40,905 nucleotides of DNA from a virus: positions 1-40,905 of the IMG/VR virus record IMGVR_UViG_3300020710_000014. One strand, given 5' to 3'. Below, in pieces: positions 3,753 through 40,905 of the stretch (positions within the stretch are counted from its first letter, which is position 1; each line of letters opens with the position of its first letter). Under the pieces are notes generated by a model. That model saw only the letters and a list, made by a program, of their open reading frames with translations, searched no databases and was not told the origin of the DNA. The position numbers and the translations under genes are program-made.

Positions 3753-3779
3753 TTTCAATTGCTATTACTGAGGTTCAAG

Positions 3780-4481
3780 ATGTTTCAACTATCAAAAGCT
3801 AGCCTGGAAACCAACAAAAGTGAGTTGCAGGGGTCTGGAATATACCGTTTAGCATCAAACTCAGGAAAATGTTATATTGGATCAGCAGGGAGTTCTCGCG
3901 GGATATTACGAAGGTTAAAAGACCACTTAATCATGTTAGAAAGAGGTAGCCATCATTCCAAAAAGCTGCAAGCTGCATGGAATAAATATGGGGAACTACA
4001 TATAACTATTTTGGAGCGTGTAACAGAAAGATTGATAGAACGAGAACAGTTTTACATTGATTTTTACAGGTCTGCAACTGAGGGTTATAATAGCAACCCA
4101 ATAGCGGGTAAAACTAGATTAGGAACAAAACTATCTGAGGAGACTAAAGAGAAGATCAGGGTGGCTAACACTGGCAAAAAAGCCTCTGAAGAAACCAAAA
4201 AACTAATGAGAGAAGTGGCTAAGAGAAAAATGGAAGAAGACCCGGAATTTGGAAAGAAGAGATCACAAAAACTTGTTGGGGTTCCTCGTTCTGAGGAGTT
4301 CAAAGCTGGTAGAAGAGCCTTTAAACACTCAGAGGAAACAAGAGAGAGAATGAAGGGGCCTAAGTCAGATGAACATAAGATGAAAATAACTGAGGGGCTG
4401 AAGGGTAAACCCAAATCTGAAGAGCATAGAAAAAATATAGCTGCTAGCAGACTTGGGAAAAAATTCAACCACCATGAGTAA
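3780..4481 (+). CDS. GIY-YIG homing endonuclease with NUMOD3 repeats
   Basis: A 233-residue protein (start ATG 3780 with GAGG upstream). The GIY-YIG nuclease core runs from GIYRLASNSGKCYIGSA through the Arg of GILRRLKDH and the catalytic Glu of EREQFYIDFY. It is followed by a run of Ser-Glu-Glu-type NUMOD3 DNA-binding repeats (KLSEETKEKI, KASEETKKLM, RSEEFKAGR, HSEETRERM, KSDEHKMKI, KSEEHRKNI). This is the architecture of phage free-standing homing endonucleases. It is the only plus-strand gene in a 20-kb minus-strand block and overlaps the RNA ligase stop by 17 bases tail-to-tail, which fits recent insertion. Confidence 0.88.
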   Translation: MFQLSKASLETNKSELQGSGIYRLASNSGKCYIGSAGSSRGILRRLKDHLIMLERGSHHSKKLQAAWNKYGELHITILERVTERLIEREQFYIDFYRSATEGYNSNPIAGKTRLGTKLSEETKEKIRVANTGKKASEETKKLMREVAKRKMEEDPEFGKKRSQKLVGVPRSEEFKAGRRAFKHSEETRERMKGPKSDEHKMKITEGLKGKPKSEEHRKNIAASRLGKKFNHHE

Positions 4482-8888: not shown

Positions 8889-9560
8889 CTAGACGAAGTT
8901 CTTACCAGAAAATTTTGACCAACCTTTGTGGGATTTTCGTCTACCAGCAGCTACTTTATGCATAGAGAGGTAATTTAGGTCTTGTACCCTACAAAATTCT
9001 CGCAGATTAGTAACGGTTTGAGGTTCCCCTGCTGGGTTTAAAAATTGATAAGTTTTTACTGTAGCTTTTAAAGCATTTTGGTAGGCTAAATCCGACAATT
9101 TTTGCCCTTTGTACATTTGCCTTAACTTCTCTTTGTTTACTTCTGACAGGGTTTGACCTTGATGAGCCTCCGACATTCTCTTTTTGCTCTCTTCTGAAGC
9201 TTTTTTGCCTAAATTCCTGCTCCTCATCTTTTCTTTTAAGGCTTCTGAGACTAGAGAAACTACCCCTCCTCCTGCTCTAAGATTATAGCCTTGGGGCACC
9301 ATTGTATCTAATTTTATTACAAACTCAACTTCTTTTATGTTTAGCTCTTCTCTGGAATTACACTCACATAAAATTTCCACTGAAAAGTTGTCCCATCCAT
9401 ATTTTTGAATGGCCCAAGCAATGGGCATATTTTTATAGGTGGCTGAAGATAAAAAACGATGACCTCTAACCCTTTTTTCAAGCGACTGAGCGGTTTGACC
9501 TACATATTTTTTATTTGTTATTTTATTAGTGATGCAATATACGAGCATGTATCTCCCCAT
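8889..9560 (-). CDS. GIY-YIG homing endonuclease with NUMOD3 and IENR1-like HTH
   Basis: A 223-residue protein. The GIY-YIG core is VYCITNKITNKKYVGQTA with the following Arg (KRVRGHR) and a Glu in KEVEFVIKLD. Residues about 110-155 contain NUMOD3-type repeats (KKASEESKKRMSEAHQGQ, LSEVNKEKLRQMYKGQ). The C-terminus (QFLNPAGEPQTVTNLREF through AAGRRKSHKGW) matches the NUMOD1/IENR1 helix-turn-helix DNA-binding module of intron-type endonucleases. SD AGGGGGT supports the first ATG. It is inserted between the NADAR gene and rIIA without breaking either frame, typical for a free-standing homing endonuclease. Confidence 0.87.
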   Translation of the reverse strand: MGRYMLVYCITNKITNKKYVGQTAQSLEKRVRGHRFLSSATYKNMPIAWAIQKYGWDNFSVEILCECNSREELNIKEVEFVIKLDTMVPQGYNLRAGGGVVSLVSEALKEKMRSRNLGKKASEESKKRMSEAHQGQTLSEVNKEKLRQMYKGQKLSDLAYQNALKATVKTYQFLNPAGEPQTVTNLREFCRVQDLNYLSMHKVAAGRRKSHKGWSKFSGKNFV

Positions 9561-12473: not shown

Positions 12474-13742
12474 TTAGTTTCCGGTGCTGCCGAATCCCCC
12501 GGTCCCCCTATTTGTAACTTCCAAGGAATCAACTTCTTCAATCTCAAAATGAGAAGCTGGCATTGGAACTATTTGTGCAATCTTTAGTGGTAACTCCAGG
12601 TCAGGAGCAAGTTTATCTACTTTTCTAAGGGCCACAATGATGTTTCCAGTATAGCTCTGGTCAATTACTCCAAGATTGTTAGCTAGTATGTAGCCTGTTT
12701 TTGAGATTGAACTTCTGGGGACGAGCGCCAACCACCAGCCTGGAGTGGGTTGAATTTTGATGCCTGTGTCGAAAAACTCCACATCTCCAACTGTTTTCAG
12801 CTTAGAAATTATCGTAATGTCATAGCCAGAGTCTGAGATATTAGTTTTACTAGGTATTTTTGCCTCAGAGCTTGTTCTCACACATTTAAAGGTCGCTAAA
12901 GTTGTGCCGGGGCCAAAAGAAGGGAGCCATGCGGCTAGTCTTCTAAAGAGTGTGTATTTTCTTTCTAATTTGAATGAGGTATTGCTGTAGATTCTACCTA
13001 AAATGTCAAGAGCATTGGACCCAGCATACTCTAAGTGGCAGCAAGCCCCTTTAGACAGAGATGAAGAAACACCCAAGAAGGCTTGAAGGCTTTCAAGAAA
13101 CTCTAATGATCCAGAAGCGAAACTACACCTAGGGTAGTTATAGAACTCCTTGTCTTGAGTCACACAACCATCTCCATCAAAAAATCCGGCTACGAAAGAG
13201 AGGGTCAATTCCGGGGAGAGCAAGGGAAATTTGATACCAAAACACTTTTTACCGTGTGAGCCTAATCCAAGATGTGTGATGACATCTGAAGCAATCTGAG
13301 TCGAGTTAAAAGTTAGCCCACAAATGTCCTTGTTTTTCTTTGAGATAACGGGACCACACTGGGACCAGTTAGCAATAGAGGTTAGAAGATTATAGCTAGA
13401 TTCATCAGATTCTTTTAAAGAAATGTTGACCGCCCCCTTTCCTATAGATCCGTCTGAAGCAATTAACCCCAAAACATAGGCTTTTTCGTGAGTGTCTATA
13501 ACAGAAAAGAGGGTGTCATCAAGTGGGTATTTCATGTTGGGATTCTTTCTTCCAGAAAATTTTAAGGTTCTTGAGCAAAATAAACATATGTCCTTGCCTT
13601 CGTTGTTATTTCTAAACCTGAGGGCGTCCTTGTAGGGGTAATTATATTGGCCTCTACATTTATCAGATACTCCAAAGTCACAGGTAACGGTGACTTTGGA
13701 GTGAGAGCCTTTGGTCAGGTATTTTACTTCTTCTTTTATCAT
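12474..13742 (-). CDS. LAGLIDADG homing endonuclease fused to dUTPase
   Basis: A 422-residue fusion. Residues 1-70 hold a Cys-containing module (C21, C29, C53, C56). The two LAGLIDADG helices are YVLGLIASDG (89-98) and FVAGFFDGDG (183-192), both with catalytic acids. From about 283 a complete dUTPase follows: motif I SDSGYDI (303-309), II PRSSIS (342-347), III LGVIDQSYTG (357-366) with the catalytic Asp, IV KIAQIV, V RGTGGFGSTG (412-421). dUTPase makes dUMP and keeps uracil out of DNA. No intein splice junction is evident (the protein starts without an N-extein), so this appears to be a true fusion. It starts inside the hairpin 13742-13783. Confidence 0.87.
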   Translation of the reverse strand: MIKEEVKYLTKGSHSKVTVTCDFGVSDKCRGQYNYPYKDALRFRNNNEGKDICLFCSRTLKFSGRKNPNMKYPLDDTLFSVIDTHEKAYVLGLIASDGSIGKGAVNISLKESDESSYNLLTSIANWSQCGPVISKKNKDICGLTFNSTQIASDVITHLGLGSHGKKCFGIKFPLLSPELTLSFVAGFFDGDGCVTQDKEFYNYPRCSFASGSLEFLESLQAFLGVSSSLSKGACCHLEYAGSNALDILGRIYSNTSFKLERKYTLFRRLAAWLPSFGPGTTLATFKCVRTSSEAKIPSKTNISDSGYDITIISKLKTVGDVEFFDTGIKIQPTPGWWLALVPRSSISKTGYILANNLGVIDQSYTGNIIVALRKVDKLAPDLELPLKIAQIVPMPASHFEIEEVDSLEVTNRGTGGFGSTGN

Positions 13743-16505: not shown

Positions 16506-17345
16506 CTATTCTGTGTCGCCTATAAGCTCTATACCGGTAGGCATTTCATAATCTTCTGGTTCCATGGCATTTACCACTACTTTTTCATCAGCGACCTCTA
16601 CCATCTCAAGAATGTAGGTTATGAGTTCATTTTCTTGTTTTTTGAATTTAGGGTCATCTAGCAGTGGGTCTTTGCCAAGAAAATCCAAAGCCCTATATCC
16701 ACTGAGAGCGTGGGGAAGCTCATCCCCCCTCTCATCATAAGCACGAGCCTCTTCGACTTCTTCCAATAATTTCTTAGCAACATCCTCTGAGTTTGTAGCA
16801 AAACCAGAACCAACAGCTATAGAATTCTGAATGAACCAACCTTGCCACGAATTAGTGACTGTGGGAGTGTTCCTATCTAAGAAATCTTGTAGAATAGCGA
16901 GTTTGTTAGACATAGAATCAGTTGGAGAAACTTTTAGTGAGGAGCGAGATACAGAACGATCATCTATAATGTTCAATCTAGCCAACTCAGTAATTAAAGC
17001 ATACTTTTCGTGATAGTTAGGCTTCTGGTGCATAGGTAGACATCTACATTCTTGCGCCAACTGTTCTTTAATCTCATCCTTTGTTCCAAACATCAGAATG
17101 TAGTCTCTTTTAAGAGAGGCTGCATCAGCATCTAAATTGGAGGAATCAAATTCTTTGTTAGTGGCAAAAAACCCCTTCAATTGGGTCAATACCTTCTTCC
17201 TAAATCTCCAGCTAGAGTTCATCAATCTTTTTCTGAAAATAAGATCGTTATATTTAGGAAAAGCAGCATCTCTAAAATGAAAAAAGTTTCGTTTGTCAAT
17301 TACCTTAGGACCCATTGGGATTTCTTTAAGCTTTAGGCTTGCCAC
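16506..17345 (-). CDS. Unknown protein, about 279 aa
   Basis: I choose GTG 17345 because AAGAGGT sits eight bases upstream. A TTG at 17351, directly after the previous stop, gives two more residues but poor spacing. The protein is charged and helical, starting ASLKLKEIPMGPKVIDKRNF and ending EPEDYEMPTGIELIGDTE. A basic first half (FRKRLMNSSWRFRKKV) contrasts with a very acidic second half (EEVEEARAYDERGDELP). No signal peptide, membrane segment or recognised motif is seen. It directly follows the glycosyltransferase gene and precedes nrdJ by about 110 bases. Confidence 0.7.
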   Translation of the reverse strand: MASLKLKEIPMGPKVIDKRNFFHFRDAAFPKYNDLIFRKRLMNSSWRFRKKVLTQLKGFFATNKEFDSSNLDADAASLKRDYILMFGTKDEIKEQLAQECRCLPMHQKPNYHEKYALITELARLNIIDDRSVSRSSLKVSPTDSMSNKLAILQDFLDRNTPTVTNSWQGWFIQNSIAVGSGFATNSEDVAKKLLEEVEEARAYDERGDELPHALSGYRALDFLGKDPLLDDPKFKKQENELITYILEMVEVADEKVVVNAMEPEDYEMPTGIELIGDTE

Positions 17346-17351
17346 TGTCAA

Positions 17352-20117: not shown

Positions 20118-20305
20118 TTAGTTAATACTCAGCAGGAGATCAAAATGATATCCAACTGTTATGGGTGATCGGTCTATTTCCATCTGACCTCTCATTTTTA
20201 TTGAACCTCTATTCCTATGGGGGTTATCTGCCAAAGCAGCCACTTTCCGATGCAAATCTGAGTTGATGATGCTCAAATTGCCTAGGTAACTAAGGTTTTT
20301 ATTTC
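20118..20305 (-). other. Gene-poor stretch with an uninterrupted frame after the downstream repeat
   Basis: Between the glycosyltransferase gene and the direct repeat no standard gene is obvious. On the minus strand one frame stays open from about 20338 through the repeat to TAA 20118-20120, ending MEIDRSPITVGYHFDLLLSI. Starts are weak: TTG (at INSDLHRKV upstream) after TAGG, or a late ATG giving about 25 residues. It may be a small gene, the 3' remnant of a gene broken by insertion of the 20306-21877 segment, or a non-coding RNA following the TnpB-like gene. Confidence 0.3.
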
Positions 20306-20332
20306 CAAGACTGTTGTCTTTTGCTATAGCTT
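20306..20332 (-). repeat. 27-bp direct repeat, downstream copy
   Basis: Exact copy of 21851-21877, 1545 bases apart. On the minus strand it contains the palindrome GCTATAGC followed by a hairpin (AAGAC, loop AACA, GTCTT). It overlaps the last codons and TAG stop of the RuvC-like gene. Confidence 0.95.
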
Positions 20333-21724
20333 TTCTTTACGGCGATCCAACCCTTTACGGACTGTGCGACATGTTCCACGATCTAAGAATGTGGCACCGT
20401 GCCACATATCTCTTTTCGCCAAAGCAAGTAGGAGGGCGTGATTGGCCATGGTTTCAGGGTTAACTTCACTACCAGTTGAGGTAATAAGCTTTCCCTGAGA
20501 CACCTTGATAAGACACGGCGCTCCCGTTAATCCCTGAATCATAGCAAAATCCTCGTGAGGAGAAAGAAGTTTTTTCTCCCATACCTTCAAGTGACATTTG
20601 TCATAAAAGGGTGTTCCACTTGGATACTGCTCACCAAATGAGATGAGTTTTGGTGATAAATAAAACTCCGTAGCACCTACCGCCGCCAGAGTCTTAAGTC
20701 TACGAGATAGTTCTTTACGAACTTCAAGTAGATGACCTGTGATTGGGAAAGTTGAGTCCATACCAATGGATCTGGTTTTCCCTTTCAGATTTTCTAAAAA
20801 TTTGTTAATAAATTGGGCCGTATTTTTTAACAAATCGCTTTTAACACAGTAGAATTCTCTATCTTCAAAAGCATTTTGAACTACGATGGACATCCCTTTA
20901 TTTGAGAAGGAGATTCCAATGTCTACAAGTCTTGGATCACGACAAAAATTGATGGATGGATCACCATCATCATTAACAACTTCACGAATTACATCAGAAA
21001 CTGTAAATGTAAAGCAGAGCAGGAAACGTTTATTTGACTTTCTAACCAATCTACAATTTATAACTCTCCTTAAGTCACTACCTAAGGAGGCCATGTAATC
21101 AGCTACCTGCTCTTTTAGGGCCGGATGTAAGGTCAGATCAAGAGGCATGGAGCCTAATCTATGCTCTTTTTTGTGCCTTAGAGGGCCTTTTGCCAATTTT
21201 CGGCGGGAAACATACTCTCGGAGGATCTTCTTGGCGTAAAAGGGTTGTTCTGAGAAATGCTGAGCCATTATGGGATCAGTTTGAAGTAGCCCAATCTGAA
21301 TCTTAGTTCCTTTCTGATCCTGGAATACCAAGTAGTTCCAAATAGTTTGATATAGAAAGAAAAGAGATGCAACCTCCTCAATTCCATCATCTTGAATCCC
21401 TAGGGATTTGCGGTGCCTCTGTTTTCTAAGAGAAAATTCGGAATCTGAGAATTCTGTGTTAGAGAAAATTCTCCCATCTTCAATGTGGTAATCTGTTTCC
21501 CTACGTTGAATAGGATCAATCCCTTTATTTAGAGAACCCCAGCCATTAAGTGTGGCCCCACGAGCAAATACACAACCATCCCACCACTCCACGGAAGACC
21601 AACAGGATTTTTTACGGTGAAACTCTTTCTTTTTGTAGAAAGATAGAGGCTTTGGAAAGACTTTCCCCATATCCTCAAATTTAGAGACAGGGTAGACTAG
21701 AAATTCAGTAGTCTGGTGGGTCAT
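20324..21724 (-). CDS. Putative RuvC-fold nuclease, TnpB/Cas12-like
   Basis: A 466-residue basic protein. Residues 221-242 (VINCRLVR, then KRFLLCFTFTV) followed after a linker by PRLVDIGISFSNKGMSIVV (264-282) resemble the WED strand plus RuvC-I of TnpB/Cas12, with D268 as candidate acid. ELSRRLKTLAAVGATEFYLSP (338-358) resembles the helix plus RuvC-II strand, E353 candidate. NPETMANHALLLALAKRD (422-439) resembles the RuvC-III helix, but the expected Asp is not clear (E420 or E424 instead) and there is no CxxC zinc ribbon. Length fits TnpB or compact Cas12. It lies between two 27-bp hairpin repeats. Start ATG 21724 with GAGG at a long spacing of 11; promoter-like AGTATAAGC at 21745-21753. Assignment is by eye and tentative. 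Confidence 0.5.
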   Translation of the reverse strand: MTHQTTEFLVYPVSKFEDMGKVFPKPLSFYKKKEFHRKKSCWSSVEWWDGCVFARGATLNGWGSLNKGIDPIQRRETDYHIEDGRIFSNTEFSDSEFSLRKQRHRKSLGIQDDGIEEVASLFFLYQTIWNYLVFQDQKGTKIQIGLLQTDPIMAQHFSEQPFYAKKILREYVSRRKLAKGPLRHKKEHRLGSMPLDLTLHPALKEQVADYMASLGSDLRRVINCRLVRKSNKRFLLCFTFTVSDVIREVVNDDGDPSINFCRDPRLVDIGISFSNKGMSIVVQNAFEDREFYCVKSDLLKNTAQFINKFLENLKGKTRSIGMDSTFPITGHLLEVRKELSRRLKTLAAVGATEFYLSPKLISFGEQYPSGTPFYDKCHLKVWEKKLLSPHEDFAMIQGLTGAPCLIKVSQGKLITSTGSEVNPETMANHALLLALAKRDMWHGATFLDRGTCRTVRKGLDRRKEKL

Positions 21725-21744
21725 CCGAAAAACATCCTCAAAGA

Positions 21745-21753
21745 GCTTATACT
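21745..21753 (-). promoter_or_regulatory. Promoter -10 motif before RuvC-like gene
   Basis: Minus-strand AGTATAAGC, 21 bases before ATG 21724, the same core and distance as at other minus-strand genes. Confidence 0.4.
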
Positions 21754-21850
21754 CATTTTAGCTCTGGAAGTTCAAAAAGTCCTGGTCACTTTTCTAGCTC
21801 ACTAAAGATAAAGAATAAATAATAAATATATTACTCTTTTCTATTCGCTT

Positions 21851-21877
21851 CAAGACTGTTGTCTTTTGCTATAGCTT
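21851..21877 (-). repeat. 27-bp direct repeat, upstream copy
   Basis: Identical to 20306-20332. In the direction of the RuvC-like gene the repeat ends with the AAGAC/GTCTT hairpin, and the bases that follow (AAGCGAATAG) differ from those after the other copy (GAAATAAAAA). Flanking sequence differs on both sides. Confidence 0.95.
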
Positions 21878-22070
21878 ATTATAGAAATTTCAAGGTTTTT
21901 TCAGGACCTCTTGCATGTAAGTTACTGATTCTACTAGTATGACCACTTCCTGACACCCCCTAAACACCTCTAATTTTGGAAAAAACTCTAATTTTTCGGT
22001 GCGATGTGTAAGTCCAGTAAATTCTGATAACCATATTCTCAACCCTAAGATGAGGATCAAAGGAGTTGAG

Positions 22071-38905: not shown

Positions 38906-40905
38906 TGAGTGATTTTCCCGGTGGAGTAGAGGTCGCGGGGTATATATCCCCAACAGCTTTATCTGACACTTTTCCAACACATGACTCCCAATTTGGTTTA
39001 GGTGGTGGTCACGAAGTAACAGATGAGACTGCTCGTAATGCCATACCCGCTACTCGTAGACGCGAGGGCATGACCTGTTATACTCAAAATGATCAACAAA
39101 CATGGCAACTTCAAGGTGGTATCCTTGATATAAATTGGGTCAATATAACCGGACAGACCGGAGCCACTGGATTATCTGGAGCCACTGGCGCTGTAGGCGC
39201 GACTGGCAACTCAGGTCCAACCTCAACTATTACAGGTATGACCGGTAATTCCGGTGGAACCGGACAGACCGGAGCTACAGGACAGACAGGTCTAAGTGGA
39301 GCCACTGGCGCTGTAGGCGCGACTGGCAATAGCGGACCTACTTCAACTATTACTGGTATGACCGGTAATTCCGGTGGAACCGGACAGACCGGAGCAACGG
39401 GACAAACTGGATTATCTGGAGCCACTGGCGCTGTAGGCGCGACTGGCAATAGTGGACCTACATCTACAGTAACTGGTATGACAGGAAATAGTGGTGGAAC
39501 AGGACTAACCGGTAACACTGGAAATAGCGGTGCTACTGGTTCTGTAGGTATGGCTGGAAATAGTGGTCCTACTTCAACAGTTACTGGTATGACTGGTAAT
39601 AGCGGTTTTACTGGATTAACTGGTATGACTGGTAATAGTGGTTCTACAGGTGCAATAGGAGCTACTGGTAATTCTGGTGCAACTGGCCCAGCTTCAACTG
39701 TTACAGGAAATACTGGACAAACAGGAAATACTGGAGTTACTGGGGCTACAGGTAATACAGGAACAGCAGGTTCTTATACAATAGCTAATGGAGTATTATT
39801 AGGAAATAATACTGGAACTACTGGTGTTCCATATGGTATATCATTAGGAACTAATTTATCATTCTCTGGTTCTACATTAAATGCATCAGGTAGTGGAACA
39901 ACAACTAATGCGTTAACAATAGGTAATGGTTTATCAGGTTCTTCATTTAATGGGTCATCACCAGTAACTATAGCTGTATCTGCTGCTAATAATACAACTA
40001 ATGCAACTTATTATCCAATATTTGCTACAACACAAGGAACTTCTGTAATATTAGGGACTAATGCTGGTTTAACTTTTAATCCTTTTACTGGCGCTGTCTC
40101 CATGGGTGCGCTCACGGCGACGAGTGGGGCGTTCAACCACGCTGCCTATCGCGGGGGCGTTGTAACGATTAGCGATGTGAACCGCACAGCCGCCTCTGCG
40201 CTTGCCAATTTCCATGTCACCACCAGCACCGCACAGGGCATAGACATTGGTGGGTCCATCGGAATGGGTGGGCAGGTTGGTGGTGATGAAACTCCCCTCG
40301 CCTACATTTCTGGGCGCAAGGAAAATTCATCCTCTGGAAACTACGCTGGCTATTTCGTGGTGCATGTCCAGGACTCCGGGGCCACGGTTTCTGAAGCCTT
40401 CCGCATCGCGTCCACTAAAGCCGCCACCTTCGCGTCCTCAGTCTCCATGGGTGCTCTCACGGCAACCGGCGCGTCTCTATACAACGCTTCAAACGCCGCC
40501 AGTATCCTGACCATCGGAAATCCTACGGGTGGTCAGAGTAGCCTGGATTTTAGACCATTCATGAATACGTCCACCTGGGCGAACCCAGCCCAGGCGCAGA
40601 TTCGAGCGATTGATGCGGGGGTCTACGGTGGGCGAATGATCTTCGCCACCAAGCAGAACGGCTCTATCGGGGCAGCCTTAACGGACGCACTCACTATTTG
40701 GGAGAACCAAACCGCCACCTTCGTGTCCTCCGTCACCATGGGTGCGCTCACGGCTACCTCCGAGACGATTTCCGGCCTCGCCACCTGGAACGGTGGCGGA
40801 AGCCTTGCGGCGGGCTACGGCATCGCCATCGGGGACGGGGCGCCGGGAGGCACCACTGGCAAGCTCTATTCGGTAGCCACCAACCAGCTCATGTGGAATG
40901 GCTCC
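38905..40905 (+). CDS. Collagen-like tail fibre (C-terminus beyond window)
   Basis: The frame opens at ATG 38905 ([20 protein letters not shown]) and runs without stop to the right edge, 667 residues visible. Residues about 50-80 ([20 protein letters not shown], then WQLQGG) are the standard attachment module of many phage fibres. From about 85 to 290 there are Gly-x-Thr collagen-like triplets ([13 protein letters not shown]), partly in 120-bp tandem copies. About 290-390 is Asn/Thr/Ser-rich and AT-rich in DNA. From about 397 the DNA turns GC-rich and the protein shows repeated SMGALTAT motifs. It is a trimeric adhesin with a mosaic, probably recently exchanged distal part. Confidence 0.85.
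39181..39500 (+). repeat. 120-bp tandem repeats in the collagen-like region
   Basis: The block beginning GCCACTGGCGCTGTAGGCGC recurs at 39181, 39301 and 39421, exactly 120 bases (40 codons) apart. Copies one and two are almost complete; the third decays after about 60 bases into related triplets. Confidence 0.9.

What the first reader, a model, noticed from the sequence alone, without database searches (positions are those of the whole stretch)
20306..21877. RuvC/TnpB-Cas12-like gene between two identical 27-bp hairpin repeats
Seen: two exact 27-bp direct repeats 1545 bases apart bracket a single gene; each contains GCTATAGC and a 5-bp hairpin (AAGAC/GTCTT, 4-base loop). Both lie in the same direction as the gene, with the hairpin at the repeat's 3' end followed by different sequence at each copy. 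In type V crRNAs a short hairpin directly precedes the spacer. The protein shows a strand-linker-VDIG arrangement and a later E-containing strand like a TnpB/Cas12 RuvC core, at TnpB size. Inference: a compact phage-borne RNA-guided nuclease with two single-guide units, or a mobile element with 27-bp ends. The unclear third catalytic acid and missing zinc ribbon are cautions.
Basis: partly seen in the sequence, partly recalled or inferred. Interest (0 to 1): 0.85.

Follow-up and report, generated by a model that had tools for sequence, protein, structure and literature searches.

The report
Phage TnpB-like element with hairpin ends
A single phage gene is bracketed by two identical hairpin repeats and carries a conserved folded RNA in its 3' end, the layout of transposon-derived RNA-guided DNA cutters of the TnpB type, although its protein cannot be matched to any known family by sequence.

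Summary
In detail: two exact 27-bp direct repeats, 1545 bp apart, bracket one 466-aa gene on the minus strand. A 56%-identical homologue sits at the same locus of a related phage (221-kb contig) between its own identical 27-bp pair. That pair differs from the window's at 7 positions but keeps the core AGCAAAAGAC-N4-GTCTT. So the two copies evolve together, and they occur nowhere else in those contigs. The gene's last third carries conserved sense-strand RNA structure with compensatory changes running up to the 3' repeat, and codons near the end are unusually conserved. Two bona fide TnpB-only elements in other phages show the same plan: same-direction hairpins about 90-130 nt upstream of the start codon and at or after the stop. 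D268-E353 spacing (85) matches TnpB (84-97 in phage TnpBs; 87 in ISDra2).

Best reading: a very divergent IS200/IS605-like, TnpB-only element, the repeats being left and right end hairpins, with an omega-RNA-like guide read from the 3' end. TnpB membership is not met: no Pfam, NCBIfam or PDB match, no zinc ribbon, third acid E rather than D. Fold prediction failed (pLDDT 33 and 39), so the nuclease fold is unproven. 'Two guide units' is disfavoured.

The parts
21851..21877 (-). Upstream 27-nt hairpin repeat, proposed left end (LE)
   Evidence: Exact match to the downstream copy; starts 153 nt upstream of the ATG; extends to a longer palindrome with the bases after it in both lineages
21876..21883 (-). 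TATAATAA block at the outer edge of the upstream repeat (its last AA are the repeat's first two bases): possible -10 promoter element or transposon-adjacent motif
   Evidence: Identical in both lineages, whereas the sequence further to its left is little conserved
20324..21724 (-). 466-aa TnpB-like protein gene; proposed catalytic residues D268, E353, E424
   Evidence: ORF; 56% identical homologue at the same locus; dN/dS about 0.17; D-E spacing 85
20300..20770 (-). Sense-strand structured RNA region overlapping the 3' third of the ORF: proposed omega-RNA/reRNA-like scaffold
   Evidence: Conserved folds with 9 and 2 doubly compensated pairs and none broken; window z-scores; synonymous constraint at the 3' end
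20306..20332 (-). Downstream 27-nt hairpin repeat overlapping the stop codon, proposed right end (RE) and 3' hairpin of the guide scaffold
   Evidence: Exact repeat; its 5' half pairs with upstream coding bases in the consensus fold
20286..20305 (-). Sequence just after the right-end hairpin: predicted guide (boundary uncertain by about 10 nt)
   Evidence: Position by analogy with ISDra2 reRNA (PMC8612924); differs between the two lineages; no second match in the window

Best explanation
The segment is a single-gene mobile-element-like unit of the IS200/IS605 'TnpB-only' plan, now a stable resident of a lineage of large phages. The two 27-nt repeats are its left- and right-end hairpins (shown as sequence; role inferred). 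The protein is a very divergent TnpB/Cas12-like effector (inferred). The gene's own transcript carries, in its last 400-450 nt, a conserved multi-hairpin RNA that ends in the right-end hairpin (structure supported by comparison of two lineages). The protein would bind this RNA and use the roughly 16-20 nt that follow, which are flanking phage DNA, as a guide (inferred). The guide plus a left-flank motif would recognise and cut copies of the locus that lack the element. Repair from an element-bearing copy would then keep or spread the element among co-infecting phages (inferred). No Y1 transposase was found in the related contigs, so movement, if any, would rely on one supplied in trans or on nuclease-driven copying.
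For: Homologue at the same locus with its own identical repeat pair, the pair having changed at 7 positions in concert while the core is kept; exactly two full-strength copies per contig, always flanking this gene. Same plan in bona fide phage TnpB-only elements: iLp1308 has an identical 20-nt hairpin at -128 and +119; Pollywog a 22-nt hairpin at -86 from the start and overlapping the stop. Sense-strand RNA structure in the ORF's 3' third: 38 pairs with 9 doubly compensated and 38 pairs with 2, none broken; window z up to -7.7 and -4.3; best windows -5.2 and -4.1 with codon alignment, where 428 control windows gave 2 at or below -4, both in one gene. Identical codons 24/32 at the end against 90/210 elsewhere, Fisher P 0.001. 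D268-E353 spacing 85 against 84-97 in phage TnpBs and 87 in ISDra2 (D191, E278: PMC8612924). Best local profile match aligns the strand pair plus D268 with the TnpB catalytic aspartate, P 0.06, third of 101 against shuffles. Published: the right-end hairpin close to the scaffold end is the one consistent omega-RNA feature (PMC10278001); reRNA is the 3' end of tnpB plus RE plus about 16 nt of flank (PMC8612924).
Against: No significant match in Pfam, PHROGs, NCBIfam, PADLOC or PDB by sequence. No zinc ribbon; third acid would be E424. AlphaFold2 models unusable and fold search uninformative. No Y1 transposase in the related contigs. No empty site found, so insertion is not shown. Same site in both lineages, so no direct sign of movement. 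RNA structure rests on two independent lineages only, and one control gene also had strong windows.
Confidence: 0.58

Rival explanations
1. The repeats are RNA or DNA binding sites for self-regulation of an ordinary phage gene. The protein binds the hairpin in its 5' leader and at its stop codon and controls its own expression, without guide RNA or cleavage.
For: Only two copies, one in the 5' leader just after TATAATAA and one at the stop codon; concerted change fits two sites bound by one protein; no nuclease family match.
Against: Does not explain the long structured RNA and synonymous constraint upstream of the 3' copy or the likeness to TnpB-only elements.
Confidence: 0.2
2. A recombination cassette: the 27-bp repeats are recombination or homing sites (or an old long target duplication) and exchange between them keeps them identical; the hairpin is incidental.
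For: Exact direct repeats with concerted evolution; the window looks rich in homing-type genes by eye.
Against: A target duplication would decay independently in each copy and lineage; the hairpin stem is preserved while loop and 5' part change; no recombinase motif identified; no single-repeat empty site found in the collections searched.
Confidence: 0.13
3. A miniature type V CRISPR locus: each repeat is a crRNA repeat with one spacer, two guide units beside a Cas12-like effector.
For: Hairpin with 5-bp stem and 4-nt loop at the repeat's 3' end, both copies in the gene's direction.
Against: No array: two copies separated by the gene in each lineage; downstream copy overlaps the stop codon and is joined to conserved upstream RNA structure; upstream copy forms a longer palindrome that uses the would-be spacer.
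Confidence: 0.05

Closest known systems
TnpB-only elements of the IS200/IS605 family and their omega-RNA/reRNA (ISDra2 TnpB as the reference; phage examples Mycobacterium phage Pollywog gp16 and Lactobacillus phage iLp1308)
   Same: One gene; same-direction hairpins at both ends, the left one 86-165 nt upstream of the start codon and the right one at or after the stop; structured RNA read from the 3' part of the gene; D-to-E spacing of about 85 residues
   Different: No detectable sequence homology to TnpB; no zinc ribbon; third acid E; end repeats unusually long and identical (27/27); same locus in two divergent phage lineages
Type V CRISPR effectors (Cas12 family, including compact phage-borne ones)
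   Same: Proposed C-terminal RuvC-like half and a short hairpin directly before variable sequence
   Different: No CRISPR array seen; two repeats only, one overlapping the gene; no Cas12 profile match
TIGR-Tas systems of phages (TasR)
   Same: Phage-encoded, RuvC-type RNA-guided system in the published case
   Different: TIGR loci have arrays of alternating 8-12-nt repeats with 9-nt spacers and TasR has its RuvC at the N-terminus (PMC12045711); here the candidate acids are in the C-terminal half and there is no array

Membership tests
TnpB (IS200/IS605, OMEGA) | Recognisable TnpB sequence domains (PF07282, PF01385) | tested here: not met
   No such match in Pfam even at E 10; PF07282 absent from the window record and both families absent from the related 221-kb contig
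TnpB (IS200/IS605, OMEGA) | RuvC-like DED active site | tested here: inconclusive
   D268, E353 and E424 conserved in both lineages, D-E spacing 85 as in TnpB (84-97 in phage TnpBs), but third acid E; fold not predicted reliably; profile match P 0.06
TnpB (IS200/IS605, OMEGA) | Zinc ribbon (paired CxxC) between the second and third acids | tested here: not met
   Cysteines in 354-423 are absent or not conserved between the homologues
TnpB (IS200/IS605, OMEGA) | Same-direction hairpin ends (LE and RE) flanking the gene | tested here: met
   27-nt identical hairpin repeats in both lineages; positions like those of iLp1308 and Pollywog TnpB
TnpB (IS200/IS605, OMEGA) | Structured guide RNA overlapping the 3' end of the gene and ending near the right-end hairpin | tested here: inconclusive
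   Conserved compensated structure and codon constraint, two lineages only; RNA not observed
TnpB (IS200/IS605, OMEGA) | RNA-guided DNA cleavage with a flank-derived guide | not testable with these tools
   Needs protein and RNA work
TnpB (IS200/IS605, OMEGA) | Y1 or serine transposase in cis (present in complete elements, absent in TnpB-only ones) | tested here: inconclusive
   No Y1_Tnp match in the five related contigs searched; serine transposase not searched; optional for TnpB-only elements
Type V CRISPR-Cas12 | CRISPR array of several repeats and spacers | tested here: not met
   Two full-strength copies flanking the gene per contig
TIGR-Tas (TasR) | Tandem dual-repeat array beside a Nop-domain protein with N-terminal RuvC | tested here: not met
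   No tandem array near the gene in the repeat search; candidate acids in the C-terminal half; no Pfam domain match

The most novel reading that the evidence does not exclude
The founding member of a separate class of compact phage RNA-guided nucleases, not descended from known TnpB or Cas12 lineages (or so far diverged as to be a new family), in which both hairpin copies are used: the right one as guide scaffold and the left one as a second guide or as a switch on the mRNA.
Probability: 0.12. Interest if true: 0.88.

Novelty: new variant of a known kind. Interest (0 to 1): 0.55.

Why it matters
If right, it adds a phage-resident OMEGA-type system that profile searches cannot see. It shows that hairpin-end pairs plus RNA structure at the 3' end of a gene can reveal such systems when protein homology fails. 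A TnpB-like effector without a zinc ribbon and with a D-E-E triad would be a useful test of how far the active site can change, and a resident guide nuclease in large phages would bear on gene drive between co-infecting phages.

Tried and rejected
Genome-wide phage regulatory repeat: rejected, two full-strength copies only, also in the 221-kb contig. Intrinsic terminator: the downstream hairpin is not followed by a T run in the window. Known RNA family: none in Rfam. Further homologues: none in GTDB genomes, INPHARED phages or PLSDB plasmids; five IMG/VR contigs besides the window's own record. Empty site: relatives found through the tail chaperone were the same five contigs; relatives found through the 915-aa gene include contigs in which no homologue of this gene was seen, but without the tail genes alongside, so they are not usable as empty sites. 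Tunturi_5, the nearest named phage, has replication and tail genes at this junction and no homologue of this gene. AlphaFold2 on the whole protein and on residues 210-466, Foldseek and VIA-align against PDB: uninformative; RNase H-like transposases appear there only at insignificant scores.

Full report
Observation. The two 27-bp repeats are exact, at 20306-20332 and 21851-21877, and are the only copies in the window even with three mismatches. On the strand of the gene (20324-21724, minus, 466 aa) each reads AAGCTATAGCAAAAGACAACAGTCTTG, with a 5-bp hairpin and 4-nt loop at its 3' end.

Relatives. The same segment is present unchanged in two IMG/VR contigs, and a homologue with 56% identity occurs in three more, one of them 221 kb long, at the same place between the 915-aa gene and the tail genes. 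That homologue has its own two identical 27-nt repeats, AAAGTACAGCAAAAGACTTCTGTCTTT. The two versions differ at 7 of 27 positions, each change being shared by both copies, while AGCAAAAGAC-N4-GTCTT is kept. Under a tolerance of two mismatches the core on the gene's strand is found only at these places in four contigs; the other two hits are reverse readings of the same palindrome. This is concerted evolution of a functional pair, not a decaying target duplication. The protein is under purifying selection (dN 0.42, dS 2.5). No homologue was found in bacterial genomes, named phages or plasmids with the searches used. The nearest named phage by tail genes is the acidobacterial phage Tunturi_5, which has no homologue of this gene.

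RNA. Nucleotide identity between the lineages rises to 82-90% in positions 1260-1380 of the aligned gene against about 45-75% in most of the rest. Among conserved amino acids with a choice of codon, 24 of 32 use the same codon near the end against 90 of 210 elsewhere (Fisher P 0.001, scan-corrected permutation P 0.017). In this part the two sequences share a long hairpin and the repeat hairpin: 38 pairs, none broken, two changed on both sides; a permutation of substitutions gives P 0.006 for the consensus energy and 0.05 for the number of doubly compensated pairs, with a weaker fold on the opposite strand. A scan along the segment found a second and stronger structure at about 20770-20600, again on the sense strand, with nine doubly compensated pairs in 38; each sequence folds into much of it alone. 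As a control, six neighbouring genes gave 2 of 428 windows at z of -4 or below, both in one 40%-identical gene, against 3 of 66 in this gene, all sense and all in its last third. The structured region therefore covers roughly the last 400-450 nt of the gene up to the right repeat. Published omega-RNAs range from 79 to 466 nt and almost all have the right-end hairpin within 10 nt of the scaffold end (PMC10278001).

The two repeat copies behave differently. In both lineages the upstream copy extends into a longer palindrome with the bases that follow it, whereas the 5' half of the downstream copy pairs with the last codons. This fits a left-end hairpin and a guide-scaffold right end better than two equal guide units. 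The block TATAATAA at the edge of the upstream copy is the same in both lineages; it could be a -10 element or the left-flank motif that a TnpB-like enzyme would need.

Comparison with known elements. Twelve TnpB loci of other phages were fetched as a yardstick. Two show clear same-direction hairpin repeats at both ends, above shuffles: iLp1308 (20 nt identical, at -128 and +119) and Pollywog (22 nt with two mismatches, at -86 from the start codon and overlapping the stop). The other ten did not show such long pairs in this simple test. The window (-153, -8) and its homologue (-165, -41) have the same plan with longer repeats.

Protein. No significant family or PDB sequence match was found. 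AlphaFold2 gave pLDDT 33 alone and 39 for residues 210-466 with three sequences, two of them identical in that stretch, and structure searches were uninformative. The support for a RuvC-like half is therefore indirect: order of predicted strands and helices in weak models, conserved D268, E353 and E424, D-to-E spacing of 85 against 84, 84, 84, 84, 86 and 97 in six phage TnpBs and 87 in ISDra2 (D191 and E278), and a profile match around D268 in the right register but insignificant (P 0.06; third of 101 against column shuffles). There is no zinc ribbon, and the third acid, if E424, is not the usual D. So it is not filed as TnpB.

Mechanism. By the published TnpB model (PMC8612924) the transcript's 3' end would be bound and trimmed, the bases after the right repeat (about 20305 downward) would serve as guide, and an empty copy of the locus would be cut and repaired from an element-bearing copy. 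Steps shown here: the repeats, their co-evolution, the conserved RNA structure. Steps inferred: binding, guide use, cutting, spread. No Y1 transposase is found in the related contigs, and both lineages carry the unit at the same site, so it may be a resident, copying rather than transposing.

Limits. Two independent lineages only; no empty site; no reliable structure; metagenome collection not available.

Noticed in passing
L010:7267 (contig 3300037010_000943): L010 and L011 differ at a single base in 18.7 kb, and that base makes a stop codon (R309 to TGA) in the homologue of this gene: a broken variant or an assembly error.
   Followed up: partly
12474-13742: ORF with what looks by eye like a LAGLIDADG-type stretch and a dUTPase-like C-terminus; 89% identical to the 221-kb phage while neighbours are 40-80%, as if recently exchanged.
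   Followed up: no
2065-2586, 3759-4481, 8889-9560: By eye, HNH and GIY-YIG type free-standing endonuclease genes; the phage looks rich in homing-type genes.
   Followed up: no
21961-21995: Tandem pair of near-identical CTCTAATTTT blocks upstream of the plus-strand tail genes, with GAAAAAACTCTAATTTT conserved in the related phage; possible phage promoter.
   Followed up: partly
16506-17351: The 281-aa gene also shows strong sense-strand covariation windows near its 3' part (z about -5); unexplained, may be an alignment effect.
   Followed up: no
39111-39518: Proline- and valine-rich repetitive stretch on the minus strand, opposite a plus-strand repeat region that may encode a collagen-like tail protein.
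   Followed up: no
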